Source: Desulfuromusa sp.
GTDB lineage: Bacteria > Desulfobacterota > Desulfuromonadia > Desulfuromonadales > Geopsychrobacteraceae
Reading direction: 5' to 3'
DNA length: 14,231 bases
Assembly (NCBI GenBank): GCA_029933365.1
Contig: JAOZOH010000075.1
Location: 1-14,231, forward strand
Part shown: positions 1 to 5,819 of the stretch, piece by piece
How positions within the stretch are numbered: position 1 is the stretch's first letter
Layout: every line of letters begins with the position of its first letter
Program-made: the position numbers and the translations under genes
The notes under the pieces: generated by a model
Databases searched by the model: none
Told to the model about the DNA's origin: nothing
The model's input: the letters and a program-made list of their open reading frames with translations, nothing else

Positions 1-13
1 TGTCTGTGGCTAA
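1..13. repeat. Right end of a TTAGCC-type repeat element
   Basis: These 13 bases are the exact reverse complement of 1564-1576, just after the acyl-CoA ligase. The first ten match the end of the GTCYG array seen at 1931-1939 and, with small changes, at 2852-2860, 3844-3852 and 4620-4628. I infer that a further copy of the intergenic element lies upstream of the window and ends here, three bases before the ligase start codon. Confidence 0.7.
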
Positions 14-16
14 TAG

Positions 17-1567
17 ATGACTTACAACCCAACATTAATTCATCACTTCCTCGAAAACAGCGCCCAGCGCTTTCCGGACAAGATCGCTCTGGTTCACGAA
101 GAAGTACGGGCAACATATCAACAGCTGAATTCTCAAGCCAATCAGCTGGCCCGATTTTTCATCGAGCAAGGTGTTGTCTCCGGTGATCGGGTTGTTCTTT
201 TGCTTGAGAACAGCCTGGAATACGTGGTCAGTTATTACGCAGTACTAAAAGCTGGTGCTATAGCCGTACCGATGAATACGGAGTTAAAACCAGATGGCCT
301 GTTACCACTGTTGCAGGAGCTGGACGCAAAGAGTCTGGTCACAGCTCGGAAATTTGAACGTCTTTTGCGAGCTGTCGATCTTTCTACAACAACAATCAAT
401 GCGCTCGTCATAAAATCGCCGAAGTTAAGCCTGAATCAGAATATTGCTGTTTTTGACTGGGATAACGTTATTCATGATTGCAACTCTTCTGATTTGAATC
501 TTGATATTTCATCCTCTTCACTTGGGAGTATCATTTACACTTCAGGATCGACTGGTCAACCAAAAGGGGTGATGCTTTCTCACGGTAATATTGTTGCCAA
601 CGCGACATCGATTTGCCAGTATTTGCAGCTGACCGACAATGATATTCAGATGGTGGTATTACCGTTCTTCTATGTCATGGGAAAATCATTGTTGAATACC
701 CACTTTGCTGTTGGCGGTAGTGTCGTTATAAATAATAAATTTGCGTATCCGGCAACAGTGATTCAGCAAATGATTGATGAGAAGGTCACTGGTTTTTCCG
801 GGGTACCATCGACCTATGCTCATCTGTTGCACAAATCACCGCTGGTAGCTTCTCGTGAAAAGCTGACCTCATTACGCTATTGTTCTCAAGCTGGAGGGCA
901 CATGGCCGGTACCACTAAACAGCAATTATTAGAAGTTTTGCCTGAACATACAAAATTATATGTCATGTACGGAGCTACCGAAGCCTCAGCACGACTAGCC
1001 TATGTCGGACCTGCCATGCTCAATGAGAAAATTGATTCTATCGGCCAAGAAATTCCCGGTGTAACGCTCAAGGTTCTGGATCAGACCGGTCTTGAACTAC
1101 CTGTGGGGAAAGTTGGTGAAATTGTTGCTTCGGGTAACAATATCATGCAGGGCTACTGGCGCAATCCTGCGGCTACGGCAGAAGTATCAAGCCAACATGG
1201 TTATCATACTGGTGATCTGGGTTATAGAGATGAGGATGGTTATTTTTTTGTTGTGGGGCGTAAGGATAATCAACTGAAGGTCGGTGGGCACCGGATTAAC
1301 ACTCAAGAAGTCGAAGATGTTATTATGGCCACAGGGTTGGCTGTAGAAGTTGCAGTGTTGGGTATCCCTGATCCATTGCTGGAAAACCGACTGGTCGCAG
1401 TGCTAGTCCCAGTAGATTCGGATCTGAAAACTAAAGAAGTCCTTTTTGCCTGTGGCAAGAGATTACCAAATTATAAAGTTCCGCAAGATATCTATTTTTG
1501 TAGCATCTTACCCAAAAGTGCCAGTGGTAAAGTTGATCGCAAGAAATGCCTGGAAAAAGCTATTTAG
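17..1567 (+). CDS. Acyl-CoA ligase (AMP-forming), exosortase-system associated
   Basis: A 516-residue ANL-superfamily adenylating enzyme, expected to activate a carboxylic acid as acyl-AMP and load it on CoA or a carrier protein in the cytoplasm. The ATP-binding loop YTSGSTGQPKG starts near residue 174, YGATE is at 318-322, the TGDLG/GRKDNQLKVGG hinge lies around 400-425, and the catalytic lysine is K505 in SASGKVDRKK. Length and the opening LIHHFLENSAQRFPDK resemble the ligases found with exosortase A/PEP-CTERM gene clusters (TIGR03098-like); the true substrate is unknown. In-frame TAA and TAG immediately precede the ATG, so no upstream extension is possible. No Shine-Dalgarno sequence is visible: a repeat end sits directly upstream. 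The stop codon lies inside the next repeat. It is about 3.2 kb from the other EPS genes. Confidence 0.9.
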   Translation: MTYNPTLIHHFLENSAQRFPDKIALVHEEVRATYQQLNSQANQLARFFIEQGVVSGDRVVLLLENSLEYVVSYYAVLKAGAIAVPMNTELKPDGLLPLLQELDAKSLVTARKFERLLRAVDLSTTTINALVIKSPKLSLNQNIAVFDWDNVIHDCNSSDLNLDISSSSLGSIIYTSGSTGQPKGVMLSHGNIVANATSICQYLQLTDNDIQMVVLPFFYVMGKSLLNTHFAVGGSVVINNKFAYPATVIQQMIDEKVTGFSGVPSTYAHLLHKSPLVASREKLTSLRYCSQAGGHMAGTTKQQLLEVLPEHTKLYVMYGATEASARLAYVGPAMLNEKIDSIGQEIPGVTLKVLDQTGLELPVGKVGEIVASGNNIMQGYWRNPAATAEVSSQHGYHTGDLGYRDEDGYFFVVGRKDNQLKVGGHRINTQEVEDVIMATGLAVEVAVLGIPDPLLENRLVAVLVPVDSDLKTKEVLFACGKRLPNYKVPQDIYFCSILPKSASGKVDRKKCLEKAI

Positions 1568-1973
1568 CCACAGACAAATGCGGACAACTGCTAGACAAAA
1601 GAAAGGCATAATTTACAGGGATGGATGGTATCTAGGGGATAGAGCCAAAAACATTTTTTTCTTGGTTTTACCCAAAAGGACGGGGCTTAGAGACTTATCC
1701 CTTTTATCCCCCATATCCCTGTGAAATGATTTTCAGGGAATGAAAAAGTTTTTAGACAGGATGAAAATCTGATAAAATCTGATATGGATCAAGAGAAAGA
1801 AATGTTTTCTTGATTTTAACCAAAAGAAGGGTTTTTAAAGCTTTTGTTTGTCATCAGATTCTATCCTGTTGATCCTGTCAAAAGAAAGATTTTTTGAATT
1901 GACTGGTTTTGTCCGCACTTGTCTGTGTGTGTCTGTGGCGAAGAAAAGATTGTGATGTTGACCTTTATCTGCG
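1564..1973. repeat. Intergenic repeat element R1 (longest copy)
   Basis: This fills most of the gap between the ligase and the first TA module. It opens with TTAGCCACAGAC and 10-bp-spaced GGACA-type units (1564-1600). A segment shared with R3 follows (about 1601-1643). Next comes a region shared with R2 with repeated ATCTGATA units (about 1750-1830). A reversed version, ATCAGATTC...GATCCTGTCA, lies at 1853-1880. It closes with an arm of three GTCYG units phased at 10 bp (1911-1939), roughly complementary to the left arm. The usual GCGGCTAA right end is missing: sequence diverges after GCG at 1973. No transposase or credible ORF is present. 1974-2081 holds only the antitoxin leader. Confidence 0.75.
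1615..1722. repeat. Imperfect inverted repeat inside R1
   Basis: ACAGGGAT at 1615-1622 is exactly complementary to ATCCCTGT at 1715-1722. The inner flanks (GGTATCTAGGGGATAG against CTTATCCCTTTTATCCCCC) also pair partly. The loop is long and no T-run follows, so I do not call it a terminator. R3 carries only the left half (3651-3679), which shows the element is modular. Confidence 0.45.
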
Positions 1974-2070
1974 TTTTTTACTCTTCGCCTCAAGGTGCCT
2001 ACTTTTGGTAAGTGAGTGAAACAAACGGGTGAGAGTTGGCAGTTTGTTTTTTTTGGTTTTTGCTTAAAAA

Positions 2071-2075
2071 AGGAG
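2071..2075 (+). promoter_or_regulatory. Ribosome binding site of the first antitoxin
   Basis: AGGAG lies six bases before the ATG at 2082. It fixes that start rather than the in-frame ATG at 2016, which has no such signal and would add a 22-residue tail unlike the family. Confidence 0.7.
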
Positions 2076-2081
2076 AGTTCT

Positions 2082-2300
2082 ATGCCAACAACAGCAGATA
2101 TTATTAAGCAAATTGAACAGTTCACTCCTGCCGATCGAGTTAAAATTATCGATATGGTGATACGTGACACGATAAAACCCGACACAGAAATTGAAAATAT
2201 TTGGATTCGGGAGGCTGAGGTGCGTTGGGATGCTTTTACTCGCGGTCAAGTCAAACCCATCCCATATGCAGAAGTTATGGCTAAGTATCAGGAAAAGTGA
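2082..2300 (+). CDS. Addiction module antitoxin (Unstab_antitox-like)
   Basis: A 72-residue acidic protein starting MPTTADIIKQIEQFTPADR. It resembles the small addiction-module component family (TIGR02574/PF09720), whose members neutralise RelE/ParE-type toxins. Features of that type are the helical N-terminal half with the phrase FTPADRVKIIDMVI, a central tryptophan-containing stretch IWIREAEVRWDAFTRGQVKPIP, and the ending YAEVMAKYQ. It is followed by the toxin with a one-base TGATG overlap, so the two are translationally coupled. As in other type II modules it probably also takes part in autoregulation, but no DNA-binding domain or operator is obvious. Confidence 0.85.
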   Translation: MPTTADIIKQIEQFTPADRVKIIDMVIRDTIKPDTEIENIWIREAEVRWDAFTRGQVKPIPYAEVMAKYQEK

Positions 2301-2596
2301 TGGAAGTAAACTTTCTGCCAATTGCGCAAATGGAGATTGATGCTGCTTTTGACTGGTATGAAAAACAGGCGATAGGTCTTGGTTACGATCTTCTTGATGC
2401 ACTCAACGACACGTTACGACTTGTCGTGTCTTATCCTGAGCTGCATCCCTTGGCAGGAGACAATATCCGACGTTGTTTGTTTAACCGATTTCCATATGCT
2501 CTATATTATGGCACCACTGAAGGCCAGATTCTTGTCGTTGCCGTTGCTCACCTACGACGAAAGCCCGGATACTGGCACGGTAGGTTGAAAGTATGA
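2300..2596 (+). CDS. RelE/ParE superfamily toxin
   Basis: A 98-residue toxin paired with the antitoxin just upstream. The ATG at 2300 overlaps the antitoxin stop by one base; a GTG one codon earlier is possible but less likely. The pattern is typical of RelE/ParE-fold proteins: an N-terminal strand and helix (FLPIAQMEIDAAFDWYEKQ), a second helix, then the core RRCLFNRFPYALYY, ILVVAVAHLRRKPGYW and a final arginine. RelE members cleave mRNA and ParE members poison gyrase; the sequence does not tell which applies. The frame is intact with tandem TGA stops. A repeat element begins about 30 bases later. Confidence 0.87.
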   Translation: MEVNFLPIAQMEIDAAFDWYEKQAIGLGYDLLDALNDTLRLVVSYPELHPLAGDNIRRCLFNRFPYALYYGTTEGQILVVAVAHLRRKPGYWHGRLKV

Positions 2597-2627
2597 TGAA
2601 GATAGATGCTGGGCGAGAGACCAGGTT

Positions 2628-2919
2628 TTAGCCACAGACAAATGCGGACAACTGCGGGACAAGGAATCAAAACCAATTTTGCCACAGATGAAAACAGATA
2701 GGTGCTGATTGGAGCTTAAAACCTTTTTTGACAGGATGAACATCTGATGAAATCTGATACGAACCAAGAAATTGAAATGTTTTTTTGATTTTAACCAAAA
2801 GAAGAGTAGATTTTTTGAATTGACTGGTTTTGTCCGCACTTGTCCGTGTGTGTCCGTGGCAAAGAAAAGATTGTGATGTTAATCTTTATCCGCGTTAATC
2901 AGCGAGTATCTGCAGCTAA
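2628..2919. repeat. Intergenic repeat element R2
   Basis: About 290 bp with inverted ends: TTAGCCACAGAC at the left and TCTGCAGCTAA at the right. The left arm has 10-bp-phased GGACA units, then a second GCCACAGATG motif at 2681. The centre (about 2736-2810) matches R1: GACAGGATGAA, ATCTGATGAAATCTGATA and TTTTAACCAAAAGAAG. The right arm carries GTCCGCACTT, GTCCGTGTGT and GTCCGTGGC at 2832-2860, then CTTTATCCGCG, TTAATCAGCG and AGTATCTGCA, again spaced by 10 bp. Nothing in the 2597-2950 gap looks coding. Confidence 0.8.
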
Positions 2920-2950
2920 GGACTGGGAATTTTAGAAAGGATTAATTCTT

Positions 2951-3241
2951 ATGAACAAGGAAGAAATTACCGATTTTCTTGTTCGGCACAAAGCTGAATT
3001 AGAATACCGCTTCGGTGTTGAACGAATCGGACTGTTTGGTAGCTACGCACGTAACGAGGCTGGTGTAGATAGTGATATCGATATTTCAGTGGTGTTGAAT
3101 AACGAAAATATTGCGGACAGTTATTTCGGTGTTCTCCATTATCTTGAGGATCATCTGCAACACAAAATTGATCTGGGACTTGAGTCCAGTATCCGCCCAG
3201 AGATCCGTGAACAGATTATGAAAGATATTATTTATGTCTGA
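2951..3241 (+). CDS. mntA: MNT-type nucleotidyltransferase antitoxin
   Basis: A 96-residue minimal nucleotidyltransferase. The signature GSX10DXD is complete: G30-S31 in GLFGSYARNEAG, then D42 and D44 in SDIDISVV. In characterised MntA/HepT modules this enzyme AMPylates a tyrosine of the HEPN toxin and so silences it. The reading frame is intact, with a plausible AAGG ribosome site about ten bases before the ATG. Its end overlaps the start of the HepT reading frame by eight bases (3234-3241), the usual coupled arrangement. The partner toxin is frameshifted, so this antitoxin may now be an orphan. Confidence 0.88.
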   Translation: MNKEEITDFLVRHKAELEYRFGVERIGLFGSYARNEAGVDSDIDISVVLNNENIADSYFGVLHYLEDHLQHKIDLGLESSIRPEIREQIMKDIIYV

Positions 3242-3579
3242 GCGTAACAGCCTTCTTTATTTACGGGATATGCTTGAATCTATAGCAGCCCATAGAATCG
3301 TTTTTACCCGGGGTTGACCGCGATAGTTTTTCCCTTGATCGGAAAACTTACTCAGCTACGATTAGGGAGTTAGAAATTATCGGTGAGGCGGCAGGAAAGG
3401 TATCGAAAGATATACAAAATTTAAATCCCGAAGTTCCCTGGAGATTATTAACTGACTTCAGGAATGTTCTCGCTCATCATTATTTTGGAGTTAATATCGA
3501 CATCGTCTGGGATATTATTCAACGTAAATTGCCAGAACTTAAAATACAGATTACAGAGATGTTGACTACTATAAAATGA
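3234..3579 (+). pseudogene. hepT: Frameshifted HepT-like HEPN toxin (DUF86)
   Basis: The frame beginning MSERNSLLYLRDMLESIAAH stops at TGA 3315-3317 after 27 codons. The next frame then continues the family sequence without a break: DRDSFSLDRKTYSATIR, ELEIIGEAAGKVS, then RNVLAHHYFGV at about 3460-3492, ending at TGA 3577-3579. The HEPN RNase motif RX4HXY is therefore present, including the tyrosine expected to be AMPylated. An indel equal to one inserted or two lost bases near 3305-3318 explains the break; restored length would be about 115 residues, normal for HepT. It could be real inactivation of the toxin or a sequencing or assembly error in the CCCGGGG stretch. Confidence 0.85.
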
Positions 3580-3599
3580 ACGGTTGAGAGGCAAAGGTT

Positions 3600-3911
3600 T
3601 TAGCCACAGACCGATGCGGACAATTGCGGGACAAAAGAAAGGCATAATTTACAGGGATGGAGGGGATCTAGGGGATAGAATCACAGGCTGTATTAGCCGC
3701 TGATAAGGTCTGATAAGGTCTGATGTTTAAAACCTAGAAATAACAAAAAGGTAAAGTCCTTGAACTATCAGATTTCATCAGACTGTATCCGCGGCAACAA
3801 GATTTTTTGAATTGACTGGTTCTGTCCGCATTTGTCCGTGTGTGTCAGTGGCAAAGAAAAGAATTTGCTGTTGATCTTTATCTGCGAACATCAGCGTGTA
3901 TCAGCGGCTAA
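3600..3911. repeat. Intergenic repeat element R3
   Basis: About 310 bp with ends TTAGCCACAGAC and ATCAGCGGCTAA (inverted). The left arm, including the GGCATAATTTACAGGGATGGA segment to 3661 and the GATCTAGGGGATAG that follows, closely matches R1. A short tandem repeat CTGATAAGGTCTGATAAGGT is at 3710-3729. The right arm has GTCCGCATTT, GTCCGTGTGT and GTCAGTGGC at 3824-3852, then CTTTATCTGCG, AACATCAGCG and TGTATCAGCG. The sequence AGGTTTTAGCCACAGAC that begins it is also at the start of R2. The gap 3580-3945 holds nothing else recognisable. Confidence 0.8.
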
Positions 3912-3945
3912 GGATTTAGAGTGGGATTAAAAGAAGGGAGCAATC

Positions 3946-4131
3946 ATGTCTACTGTCAAGGAAAGAATACACGGGATCATTCAATCGCAACCGGAAGATG
4001 CGTCCTACGAAGAAATTCTTCGTGAACTTACTTTTGAGCGAATGGTTGACAGAGGGTTGGACGATTATCGGAAAGGGAGACTTTTGACCAGCGATGAAAT
4101 GGAGCATCGGATTCGTCAATGGAGCGAGTAA
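3946..4131 (+). CDS. Small antitoxin of a ParE-like module
   Basis: A 61-residue charged protein, MSTVKERIHGIIQSQPEDAS onward, with the helical phrase YEEILRELTFERMVDRGLDDYRKGRLLTSDEMEHRIRQW. The ending resembles short antitoxins of the type that precede ParE toxins, where a C-terminal helix wraps the toxin. GGGAG at 3936-3940 lies five bases before the ATG and supports this start. It overlaps the downstream toxin gene by 13 bases. No clear DNA-binding domain is visible. The assignment rests mainly on size and on the neighbouring toxin. Confidence 0.8.
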   Translation: MSTVKERIHGIIQSQPEDASYEEILRELTFERMVDRGLDDYRKGRLLTSDEMEHRIRQWSE

Positions 4132-4415
4132 TATGGACAAATGAAGCCCAGACGTGGCTTCAAGATATTCACGATTATATCGCTGCAGACAACCCACAAG
4201 CTGCTCAAAAGGTCGTAAGTGGAATTTACCATAGAGCCCAGGGGCTTTCTTCTTATCCTGAGTCAGGTTCTTATTATCGATCTGAACCGGAAGGCGTTAT
4301 CAGAATATTGCTTTATGGTCATTATCGAATTGCATATTTGTTGACTCCTTCAAGGAAGATTGTAATTTTAGGTGTATTTCACGGTGCTCTGGATATCAAC
4401 CGTTATCTTCTATAG
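4119..4415 (+). CDS. ParE-family toxin
   Basis: A 98-residue RelE/ParE-superfamily toxin. The N-terminal part VIWTNEAQTWLQDIHDYIA followed by ADNPQAAQKVVSGIYHRAQGLSSYP is the helical hairpin typical of ParE. The core then runs RILLYGHYRIAYLLTPSRKIVILGVFHGALDI. In characterised ParE proteins the target is DNA gyrase; that is family knowledge, not shown here. The frame is complete and starts within the last codons of the antitoxin gene, so the pair is coupled. Unlike the other two TA modules, it is not followed by a TTAGCCACAGAC left arm. Confidence 0.87.
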   Translation: MERVIWTNEAQTWLQDIHDYIAADNPQAAQKVVSGIYHRAQGLSSYPESGSYYRSEPEGVIRILLYGHYRIAYLLTPSRKIVILGVFHGALDINRYLL

Positions 4416-4540
4416 CTATATTATTAGTTCTCTCAGTGTGATCCATTTAGAGGTTAACTGATCTTAGAGATATACAGGCGAATCATTGTTTTGAAGTTTG
4501 TTTTAACTGATAGGAAAGCTTCTTAAGATTCAAGTTTAAT

Positions 4541-4687
4541 ATCAGACCTTATCCTGTTGATCCTGTCAGAAGAGTAGGTTTTCTGAATTGACCGGTTCTG
4601 TCCGCTGTTGTCCGTGTGTGTCCGTGGCAAAGGAAATATTGTGATGTTGATCTTTATCTGCTGTTATCAGCGAGTATCTGCGGCTAA
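4541..4687. repeat. Intergenic repeat element R4 (right half only)
   Basis: Only the right-hand part of the element is present: ATCAGACC, TTATCCTGTTGATCCTGTCAG, CTGAATTGACCGGTTCTG, then GTCCGCTGTT, GTCCGTGTGT and GTCCGTGGC at 4600-4628. CTTTATCTGCT, GTTATCAGCG, AGTATCTGCG and GCTAA follow, ending at 4687. After the end, GGATTTGAGTGGGATT is nearly the same as after R3. The left arm is missing; 4416-4540 is AT-rich and holds nothing I recognise. It lies directly upstream of the FemAB-like gene and may include or displace that operon's promoter. Confidence 0.75.
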
Positions 4688-4739
4688 GGATTTGAGTGGG
4701 ATTGTCGATAAGAAGAGATGTGAAGAAAAAGTATGAATT

Positions 4740-5819
4740 ATGGCTGTTGAAATTAAATTATTGAATCCTGTCGATACCAATCTTTGGAATGCATACGTGG
4801 CAGCCCACCAACATGGGAGTGTATATCATCACTCCGTCTGGGGGAGGGCGATTCAGCAAACCTATGGTCATCAGATTTTCAACCTGATAGCTAATGACTC
4901 TACTGGAACAGTCATCGGAGTATTGCCTCTGGTCCATATAAAACACTTTCTGTTTGGGAATAATCTTTTCTCTTTACCGTTCGCCGATTTGGGTGGAATT
5001 CTGGCGGATGATACAGAAGTTGAAAAAGCTCTTTTGACCAAGGCAATGGAGATTGCAGCTGAACATGGTATTCCCACTATTGAGCTTAGACAAACATATG
5101 AATTGAATGTGTCCGCGCTGCCATCAAACACAGCCTATAGATATGATACTAATGCCTCGCAGCAAACAGCCAAGGTTCGGATGCTACTGGATTTACCCGA
5201 TTCCTCGGAAGAATTGATGAGTTCATTTAAGTCAAAATTGCGCAGTCAAATTCGTCGACCACTGAAAGACGGATTAACAGCTAAAGTTGGCGGAACAGAA
5301 TTGTTAAACGATTTCTATATTGTCTTTGCGGAGAATATGCGTGATCTGGGCTCTCCAGTTCATTCGAAAAGATTTATTGAAAATTTACTGAATGAACTTC
5401 CAGAAAGCACACGGATATTTATTGTTTATAAAGATGATACCCCTTTAGCCTGCAGTCTCACTCTGGGGCACGGAAAGATCCTCGCAAATCCCTGGGCTTC
5501 ATCATTACGCAGGTATAGTCGTTTGAGTCCAAATATGCTTCTGTATTGGACTATGCTCGAATATGCTTGTGCTAATGGTTTTTCTGTCTTTGATTTCGGT
5601 AGATCAACGCCTGATGAAGGGACCTATAAATTTAAAAAGCAGTGGGGGGCAAAGGAGTCACCACTTTGTTGGCAGATTCTTTCCAATCAAACTGAAACAT
5701 CAAATTCTTCAACAACTGACAAGTCAAAATTTGAGCTGGCAATGCAGGTTTGGAAAAAACTACCCGTTTCTGTCAGTAAAGTCCTTGGTCCAGTTGTCCG
5801 TAAGAATATAGGTTTATAA
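4740..5819 (+). CDS. FemAB-like protein, exosortase/PEP-CTERM system associated
   Basis: A 359-residue protein with the double-GNAT architecture of FemAB-like enzymes, which transfer amino-acid or other acyl groups. It belongs with the family found in exosortase/PEP-CTERM clusters (TIGR03019-like). Evidence: the N-terminal phrase VYHHSVWGRAIQQTYGH, the middle SSFKSKLRSQIRRPLKDGL, and the highly typical FDFGRSTPDEGTYKFKKQWG near residues 283-302. No signal peptide is seen, so it should act in the cytoplasm. The substrate is unknown; a sugar or amino acid of the EPS precursor is plausible. It opens the compact operon: its stop overlaps the next ATG by one base. The ribosome site is weak, and an out-of-frame ATG at 4733 opens a five-codon frame running over this start. 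Confidence 0.88.
   Translation: MAVEIKLLNPVDTNLWNAYVAAHQHGSVYHHSVWGRAIQQTYGHQIFNLIANDSTGTVIGVLPLVHIKHFLFGNNLFSLPFADLGGILADDTEVEKALLTKAMEIAAEHGIPTIELRQTYELNVSALPSNTAYRYDTNASQQTAKVRMLLDLPDSSEELMSSFKSKLRSQIRRPLKDGLTAKVGGTELLNDFYIVFAENMRDLGSPVHSKRFIENLLNELPESTRIFIVYKDDTPLACSLTLGHGKILANPWASSLRRYSRLSPNMLLYWTMLEYACANGFSVFDFGRSTPDEGTYKFKKQWGAKESPLCWQILSNQTETSNSSTTDKSKFELAMQVWKKLPVSVSKVLGPVVRKNIGL

What the first reader, a model, noticed from the sequence alone, without database searches (positions are those of the whole stretch)
1564..4739. Alternating array of TA cassettes and related repeat elements inside an exosortase EPS locus
Three unrelated TA modules (addiction-module/RelE-ParE, MNT/HepT, small antitoxin/ParE) are each set between copies of the same mosaic repeat. 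The junctions are conserved: AGGTTTTAGCCACAGAC follows two of the modules (at 2624 and 3595), and GGATTTRGAGTGGGATT-like sequence follows the right ends at 3912 and 4688. The different gene contents with common borders suggest exchangeable cassettes captured by recombination between repeats, without a visible recombinase.
Basis: partly seen in the sequence, partly recalled or inferred. Interest (0 to 1): 0.72.

Follow-up and report, generated by a model that had tools for sequence, protein, structure and literature searches.

The report
Toxin-antitoxin genes among palindromic repeat elements
Three small toxin-antitoxin gene pairs sit between copies of a palindromic, transposon-like repeat inside a polysaccharide operon; related bacteria carry other small accessory genes in the same kind of operon, but whether the repeats captured these genes is not shown.

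Summary
Three full elements and one half element alternate with three toxin-antitoxin (TA) modules in a 3.2-kb gap between an acyl-CoA ligase and FemAB of an exosortase EPS locus. The elements are nested palindromes (TTAGCC...GGCTAA). The shared borders are element ends: one abuts the core gene femAB. Toxins 1 and 3 both resemble ParE; HepT is frameshifted.

A homologous EPS locus (G153) has an element at the ligase stop codon, as here, without TA genes; elsewhere it holds other small modules beside such ends. FemAB loci of 22 genomes gave 16 TA, GxxExxY or 23S-IVP hits in 367 kb, HU regions of the same genomes 1 in 372 kb.

For capture: direct repeats lie within 750 bp on both sides of 10 of 43 HepT and ParE loci, against 1 of 52 controls. 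Against: 21 of 26 repeat places read lie beside ordinary genes, and HepT and ParE genes are rarely inside inverted arms. 23S-IVP and GxxExxY genes mostly are (20 of 23, 13 of 19, 16 of 23; controls 0 of 24, 0 of 28). Exchange between strains could not be tested.

The parts
1..13 (+). probable right end (TGTCTGTGGCTAA) of a further element that starts outside the window, just upstream of the ligase start codon
   Evidence: direct sequence; repeat family D15, 80% over 20 nt; a right arm ending TGTCTGTGGC also precedes the ligase in G153
17..1567 (+). AMP-forming acyl-CoA ligase, exosortase-system type; its TAG stop lies inside the element terminus TTTAGCC
   Evidence: PF00501; TIGR03098 371.8 bits, below that model's cut-off
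1563..1975 (+). element 1: nested palindromes (TTTAGCCACAGAC...GTCTGTGGC), right part degenerate to about 2001
   Evidence: 1563-1945 folds with z -6.46
2082..2300 (+). module 1 antitoxin (Unstab_antitox)
   Evidence: PF09720 34.1 bits, cut-off 23.3
2297..2596 (+). module 1 toxin, ParE/RelE-like
   Evidence: PF05016 20.2 bits, below cut-off 23
2623..2922 (+). element 2, both ends present (AGGTTTTAGCCACAGAC...CTGCAGCTAAGGA)
   Evidence: fold z -3.21, 1 of 200 shuffles as good
2951..3241 (+). module 2 antitoxin, MntA-like nucleotidyltransferase
   Evidence: PF01909 58.9 bits; NF047752 45 bits, below cut-off 60
3234..3579 (+). module 2 toxin region, HepT; reading frame broken before 3317
   Evidence: three-frame translation; stop-to-stop piece 3286-3576 matches a local HepT profile at 8e-32
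3595..3928 (+). element 3, both ends present; border GGATTTAGAGTGGGATT
   Evidence: 3595-3914 folds with z -5.49
3946..4131 (+). module 3 antitoxin candidate, 61 aa, no family match
   Evidence: no match
4119..4415 (+). module 3 toxin, ParE
   Evidence: PF05016 51.6 bits, cut-off 23
4541..4703 (+). element 4, right half only; border GGATTTGAGTGGGATT before femAB
   Evidence: 4416-4690 shows no excess folding (z +0.36)
4740..5819 (+). FemAB family XrtA/PEP-CTERM-associated protein, native EPS gene
   Evidence: TIGR03019 315.3 bits, cut-off 260.35

Best explanation
The array is an insertion-tolerant gap of an exosortase EPS operon that has collected two kinds of passengers: nested palindromic, MITE-like elements (termini TTAGCC...GGCTAA) that insert beside and into one another, and toxin-antitoxin modules that lie between elements. 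Shown: the elements and their ends, the palindromic folding of three copies, a border shared with a native gene, the recurrence of such elements plus other small modules in a homologous EPS locus, and the excess of small modules in FemAB loci. Inferred: that the elements moved by transposition (a relative in one genome shows exact 5-bp target duplications), that TA modules arrived beside resident elements and that direct element copies then helped duplicate or shuffle element-plus-module units by homologous recombination, and that the long hairpins in the transcript separate module mRNA from EPS mRNA (for example by RNase III) and so make the insertions tolerable.
For: Element copies at 85-94% identity stand before and after each module, the last one as a half. 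Copies 1-3 fold far better than dinucleotide shuffles, and the element after the G153 ligase is a near-perfect 175-nt hairpin, z -14.73. The ligase stop codon lies inside TTTAGCC in both species, with no TA gene in the G153 gap. In G153, 8 of 13 places of the pattern lie in 8.5 kb of the EPS locus, the reversed control pattern having 0. Module density: 16 hits in 367 kb (6 of 22 FemAB loci) against 1 in 372 kb (1 of 22 HU regions of the same genomes) and 0 in 315 kb (18 further HU regions). Tandem modules (PF24732, PF09720, PF05016, two nucleotidyltransferases, HicA) stand upstream of femAB in L019. Of 33 open-frame hits in the FemAB loci (some genes split over two frames), 29 are on the FemAB strand. 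In G145 all 7 copies with both ends, of 10 read, have exact 5-bp AT-rich flanking duplications.
Against: TA families show little affinity for inverted periodic arms: unit clusters in flanks of HepT 2 of 26 and ParE 1 of 28 loci (that detector also finds only 3 right ends of the window's own elements, so it misses some); inverted pairing with 750/300-bp flanks HepT 1 of 20, ParE 0 of 23. The direct-repeat excess around TA loci (10 of 43 against 1 of 52) fits cassette exchange as well or better. The G145 element shares the arm word but not the ends of the window element. No target-site duplication is evident at the window copies. No related transposase was found in the 12 ORFs scanned. The ligase (over 45% identity) was found in only 2 of 80 FemAB loci, 2.1 and 3.7 kb before FemAB, so no true empty site exists for this gap. 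The EPS excess is clustered: by locus, 6 of 22 against 1 of 22 has a two-sided Fisher p of 0.095.
Confidence: 0.5

Rival explanations
1. Exchangeable cassettes: TA modules are moved between element copies by homologous recombination across the repeats, without a dedicated recombinase.
For: Similar ends beside different modules in the window, in G153 EPS and at the G153 Phd/PIN site; flanks of the window modules match in direct orientation (152-165 against 28-39 inverted); with 750-bp flanks direct repeats bracket HepT 5 of 20 and ParE 5 of 23 loci against HU 1 of 24 and response regulators 0 of 28, Fisher p 0.002, six of the ten over 90 nt long. This last test was made after the others and at the widest of three flank widths; narrower flanks gave fewer (0 and 1, then 2 and 3). 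Some of the repeats may be duplicated gene parts.
Against: One such end abuts femAB and another probably the ligase; 21 of 26 repeat places read lie by ordinary genes; elements are palindromes with their own ends; no strain comparison was possible.
Confidence: 0.3
2. Coincidence in a tolerant region: EPS gaps accumulate any small insertion, and elements and TA modules arrived independently with no functional link.
For: The FemAB loci also hold IVP, GxxExxY and HicA genes and another EPS locus a caspase-domain gene; TA families are not tied to inverted arms elsewhere; the L019 array has TA modules with little sign of elements by eye.
Against: Three modules in a row, each with element copies on both sides; element places in G153 are concentrated in the EPS locus and at a TA site rather than spread over 5.4 Mb; direct repeats around 10 of 43 TA loci.
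Confidence: 0.15
3. The hairpins are functional RNA regulators of the EPS operon (attenuators or processing sites) and were duplicated for that reason.
For: Strong folding of copies 1-3 and of the G153 element; element at the same place after the ligase in two species.
Against: No Rfam match at gathering thresholds; the copy-4 stretch does not fold well; related repeats also lie in unrelated places.
Confidence: 0.05

Closest known systems
[quoted passage not shown]
   Same: Short, non-coding, inverted-repeat ends; in G145 related near-identical copies with exact 5-bp flanking duplications (7 of 7 copies with both ends).
   Different: Arms are built of about 10-nt periodic units and nested inside one another; no parent transposase identified; no duplication seen at the window copies.
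TA islands / clustered TAS (Makarova, Wolf, Koonin 2009, PMC2701414; passages read)
   Same: Neighbouring TA pairs of different classes on the chromosome; preferential incorporation or transfer of multi-pair cassettes is proposed there.
   Different: Here the modules are separated by a repeat element and lie inside an EPS operon; 'polysaccharide', 'inverted repeat' and 'palindrom' do not occur in that main text.
23S rRNA intervening sequences with an S23p/IVP ORF (PMC4990558; passages read, some from the abstract)
   Same: A small ORF between complementary ends that form a long stem; called selfish; horizontal transfer proposed.
   Different: The window modules lie between palindromes, not inside one, and include no IVP gene; related EPS loci do contain IVP genes within arms, as IVP genes do in general.
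Integron cassette arrays
   Same: Alternation of short repeats and small accessory genes, TA modules included (recalled).
   Different: No integrase among the 12 window ORFs scanned; the repeats are composites of roughly 300-440 nt and one borders a native gene.

Membership tests
MITE | short non-coding element with terminal inverted repeats | tested here: met
   elements 1-3 have inverted arms and fold with z -3.2 to -6.5; element 4 lacks a left half and does not
MITE | target-site duplication | tested here: inconclusive
   none evident at the window copies by eye; in G145, 7 of the 10 copies read have both ends and all 7 have exact 5-bp duplications, but its ends differ from the window's
MITE | many copies in the host genome | not testable with these tools
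   no genome held; related repeats: 18 places in G145, 13 in G153
MITE | related autonomous transposase | not tested
   not searched for by end sequence; none among the 12 window ORFs scanned
TA island | adjacent TA pairs of different class | tested here: met
   PF09720/ParE-like, MntA/HepT (HepT frame broken), small ORF/ParE; toxins 1 and 3 are of one family
23S-IVP type element | ORF inside complementary arms | tested here: not met
   window modules have direct element copies on both sides (direct score 152-165, inverted 28-39)
Integron | tyrosine integrase next to the array | tested here: not met
   none in the 12 distinct window ORFs scanned; the locus continues outside the window
Integron | attC sites | not tested
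   no attC model was run

The most novel reading that the evidence does not exclude
The window shows one face of a widespread, apparently undescribed class of small mobile cassettes: a short gene (23S-IVP four-helix-bundle protein, or GxxExxY PD-(D/E)XK-fold protein) held between arms of about 10-nt periodic units whose sequence differs from locus to locus but whose two arms stay complementary. Gene-less palindromes are the non-autonomous form. EPS operons are preferred harbours, and TA modules ride between the palindromes. The preserved complementarity points to excision or processing as a hairpin at the RNA level, as for rRNA intervening sequences.
Probability: 0.3. Interest if true: 0.85.

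Novelty: new variant of a known kind. Interest (0 to 1): 0.6.

Why it matters
Which chromosomal genes collect TA modules was asked by a reviewer of a main TA survey in 2009, and the authors said that they were looking into it (PMC2701414, passage). Here one class of locus, the exosortase EPS operon, collects unrelated small modules in several lineages, and the repeats next to some of them give defined borders, so gain and loss can be tested by sequencing strains. The by-product may be more general: two gene families sit inside locus-specific complementary arms in most loci tested, one of them also in a second phylum-level sample, which suggests that an arrangement known from rRNA intervening sequences occurs in ordinary operons.

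Tried and rejected
Generic inverted-repeat scans around genes were uninformative, because terminators dominate (HU controls scored highest). The exact 19-base right-arm word gave nothing in viral contigs, and element 3 nothing in plasmids. The right half of element 2 gave one weak match in 22 genomes of FemAB relatives, and BLAST of the elements against the 80 FemAB loci gave only weak matches, E 0.025 or more. A stricter word (TTGTCCGTGTGTGTCCGTGGC, one mismatch) was in 2 of 395 genomes. Rfam gave no match at gathering thresholds. Paper searches for the repeat words, for GxxExxY and for TA modules in EPS loci listed no paper that I recognised as describing this arrangement (listings only, plus passages of PMC8934634, PMC12085832, PMC2701414 and PMC4990558); that open-access library lacks most subscription journals and all preprints. 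The view that TA modules in general live inside these palindromes was rejected. The local profiles missed window module 1, so their counts are lower bounds; their seeds came from the window, L103, L112, L113, L125, L276, L281, L282 and L291 and from the family loci L126-L155, L186-L215 and L246-L275, none from L001-L080.
Full report
What is there. The stretch between an AMP-forming acyl-CoA ligase (17-1567) and FemAB (4740-5819) of an exosortase EPS locus holds four copies of a composite repeat and three TA modules. All six pairs of repeat copies match at 85-94% identity over stretches of 36-129 nt, E 9e-13 to 8e-44. Three copies have left ends (1563, 2623, 3595); the fourth is a right half (about 4541-4703). 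Complete copies are sets of nested palindromes: an outer arm of the type GCCACAGAC..GCGGACAA, with inner palindromes of other unit words. Copies 1-3 fold with z -6.46, -3.21 and -5.49 against dinucleotide shuffles; the stretch 4416-4690 with copy 4 does not (+0.36). The first 13 bases of the window look like the right end of a further copy just before the ligase start codon.

The modules. Module 1 is an Unstab_antitox (PF09720) plus a ParE-like toxin under the Pfam cut-off. Module 2 is an MntA-like nucleotidyltransferase plus HepT whose frame, opening at 3234, is broken before a stop at 3315-3317. Module 3 is a small ORF without family match plus ParE. So two of the three toxins belong to one family, although BLASTP finds no similarity between them. 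All these genes run in the EPS direction.

The borders. AGGTTTTAGCCACAGAC is the left end of the element. The 17-nt border GGATTTAGAGTGGGATT (16 nt at copy 4) follows two right ends, one before module 3 and one before femAB. Because femAB is a native EPS gene, the border belongs to the element, not to a cassette.

Comparison with a homologous locus. No genome is held for the window, and the best FemAB in named genomes is 57% identical. Genome G153 has an EPS locus with a 59% identical ligase, a 49% identical SGNH-like protein and exosortase-like genes. There the ligase stop codon also lies inside TTTAGCC of an element, which folds as a near-perfect 175-nt hairpin (z -14.73), and no TA gene is in that gap. 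Upstream of the ligase stand a full palindrome, a GxxExxY gene and a right arm. Further on, right ends stand on both sides of a nucleotidyltransferase that matches DUF6036 and AbiEii, and other small modules follow, among them AbiEii-like, DUF2283, 23S-IVP and nucleotidyltransferase/HEPN genes. In the whole of G153 the pattern has 13 places (0 for the reversed control); 8 lie in 8.5 kb of this locus. Two others, 879 bp apart, bracket a Phd/PIN module next to an AbiEi-type ORF; one is at a GxxExxY gene, one lies 0.5 kb before a gene that looks like GDP-mannose dehydratase, and one lies inside a long ORF and may be chance.

Are EPS loci special? With local profiles, 22 FemAB loci (367 kb) gave 16 hits in 6 loci; HU-centred regions of the same 22 genomes (372 kb) gave 1 hit; 18 HU regions from 10 repeat-bearing genomes (315 kb) gave 0. 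All 80 FemAB loci gave 31 hits in 10 loci. By hits the difference is strong (binomial p 1e-4), by loci it is marginal (6 of 22 against 1 of 22, two-sided Fisher p 0.095). At a looser threshold 33 open-frame hits were listed, some being halves of one gene; 29 are on the FemAB strand, and in 6 of the 66 loci with more than 1.5 kb upstream a module lies within 1 kb upstream of femAB. The clearest is L019 (Candidatus Desulfobacula maris MAG), with ParE-like, PF09720, ParE, two nucleotidyltransferases and HicA in a row before femAB. FemAB and the following aminotransferase are 0-18 bp apart in 14 of 24 loci where both were found, but 749 bp (L007) and 530 bp (L014) where an IVP gene stands between them; the other 8 have gaps of 45-2045 bp or another order, without a listed module there. 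Two further EPS loci, L281 and L282, are crowded with such modules; they were chosen because their contigs carry the repeat, so they are illustrations and not a test.

Do the repeats collect TA genes? Pattern GCCACRGACANANRCGGACAA with one mismatch allowed was found in 18 of 395 genomes (45 places; reversed control in 4 of 395, one place each). Of these places 37 were listed; I read the neighbours of 26 independent ones by eye: 5 were next to TA, GxxExxY or IVP genes and 21 next to other genes, which I call ordinary, though one is beside a Uma2-like ORF and one lies in an EPS contig that has TA modules farther off. In G145, 10 of 18 copies were read: near-identical, 166 bp in the commonest form, beside ordinary genes with one exception (a PF09720/ParE-like pair), and all 7 that have both ends show exact 5-bp AT-rich duplications. 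That element shares the arm word with the window's but not the ends. Taking genes first: clusters of at least three periodic units in 700-bp flanks were found at HepT 2 of 26, ParE 1 of 28, HU 0 of 25 and response regulators 1 of 30 loci, but at GxxExxY 20 of 26 (30 fetched per family, short loci dropped). That detector finds only 3 right ends of the window's own elements, so its low counts are not decisive.

A motif-free test. Aligning 300 bp upstream with the reverse complement of 300 bp downstream, score 30 or more: IVP 20 of 23 (7 dropped), IVP in a second sample (phylum of the genome of L018, a Nitrospirota MAG) 13 of 19 (11 dropped), GxxExxY 16 of 23 (7 dropped), HepT 0 of 20 (10 dropped), ParE 0 of 23 (7 dropped), HU 0 of 24 (6 dropped), response regulators 0 of 28 (2 dropped). 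Flanks swapped between loci reach 30 in 1-5% of pairs, except response regulators at 17%, for which I have no checked reason. With 750 bp upstream, to clear partner genes, HepT gives 1, ParE 0 and HU 1; with 750 bp on both sides HepT 3, ParE 2 and HU 2. So IVP and GxxExxY genes lie inside arms that are complementary within a locus but mostly differ between loci; at GxxExxY, 12 of 23 loci match in direct orientation as well.

Direct repeats. The window modules have flanks that match in direct orientation (152-165 against 28-39 inverted), because they lie between elements. With 750 bp on both sides, direct matches of 30 or more occur at HepT 5 of 20 and ParE 5 of 23 loci, against HU 1 of 24 and response regulators 0 of 28 (Fisher p 0.002); six of the ten are over 90 nt long, among them the G362 array, and the rest are 20-34 nt. 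I ran this last, at three flank widths; narrower flanks gave 0 and 1, then 2 and 3. Some may be duplicated gene parts.

Reading. I favour an EPS-operon gap that collects both MITE-like palindromes and TA modules, with copies later rearranged by recombination, over a true cassette-exchange system, but by a smaller margin after the direct-repeat result. Strain comparisons at the element ends would decide it. The most novel reading is that palindromic arms around small genes form a general class of mobile cassette related in structure to rRNA intervening sequences; the arm test supports the structure, not yet the mobility.

Noticed in passing
L337-L396 and L186-L215 (flanks of 23S-IVP and GxxExxY genes): These genes lie between complementary arms of about 10-nt periodic units whose sequence mostly differs by locus: IVP 20 of 23 and 13 of 19, GxxExxY 16 of 23, against 0 of 24 and 0 of 28 control loci.
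   Followed up: partly
L130, L139, L142, L255, L258, L265: HepT or ParE loci with direct repeats over 90 nt long on both sides within 750 bp.
   Followed up: partly
window 3234-3317: HepT toxin frame of module 2 is broken while its MntA partner is open.
   Followed up: no
L114-L123 (genome G145): Near-identical palindromic MITE-like element, 166 bp in the commonest form, 18 pattern places in 1.8 Mb; exact 5-bp AT-rich flanking duplications in all 7 copies with both ends of 10 read.
   Followed up: partly
L276:16268-16738, L282:2036-2422: 23S-IVP proteins also match the bAvd family (accessory protein of diversity-generating retroelements; role recalled): 45.2 bits, above its cut-off of 40, in the first and 34.6, below it, in the second.
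   Followed up: no
L007:11190-11930: An IVP gene in the FemAB-aminotransferase gap is interrupted by an ORF that looks like a GIY-YIG nuclease (by eye).
   Followed up: no
L282:6553-7377: A caspase-domain (Peptidase_C14) protein lies among the small modules of an EPS locus.
   Followed up: no
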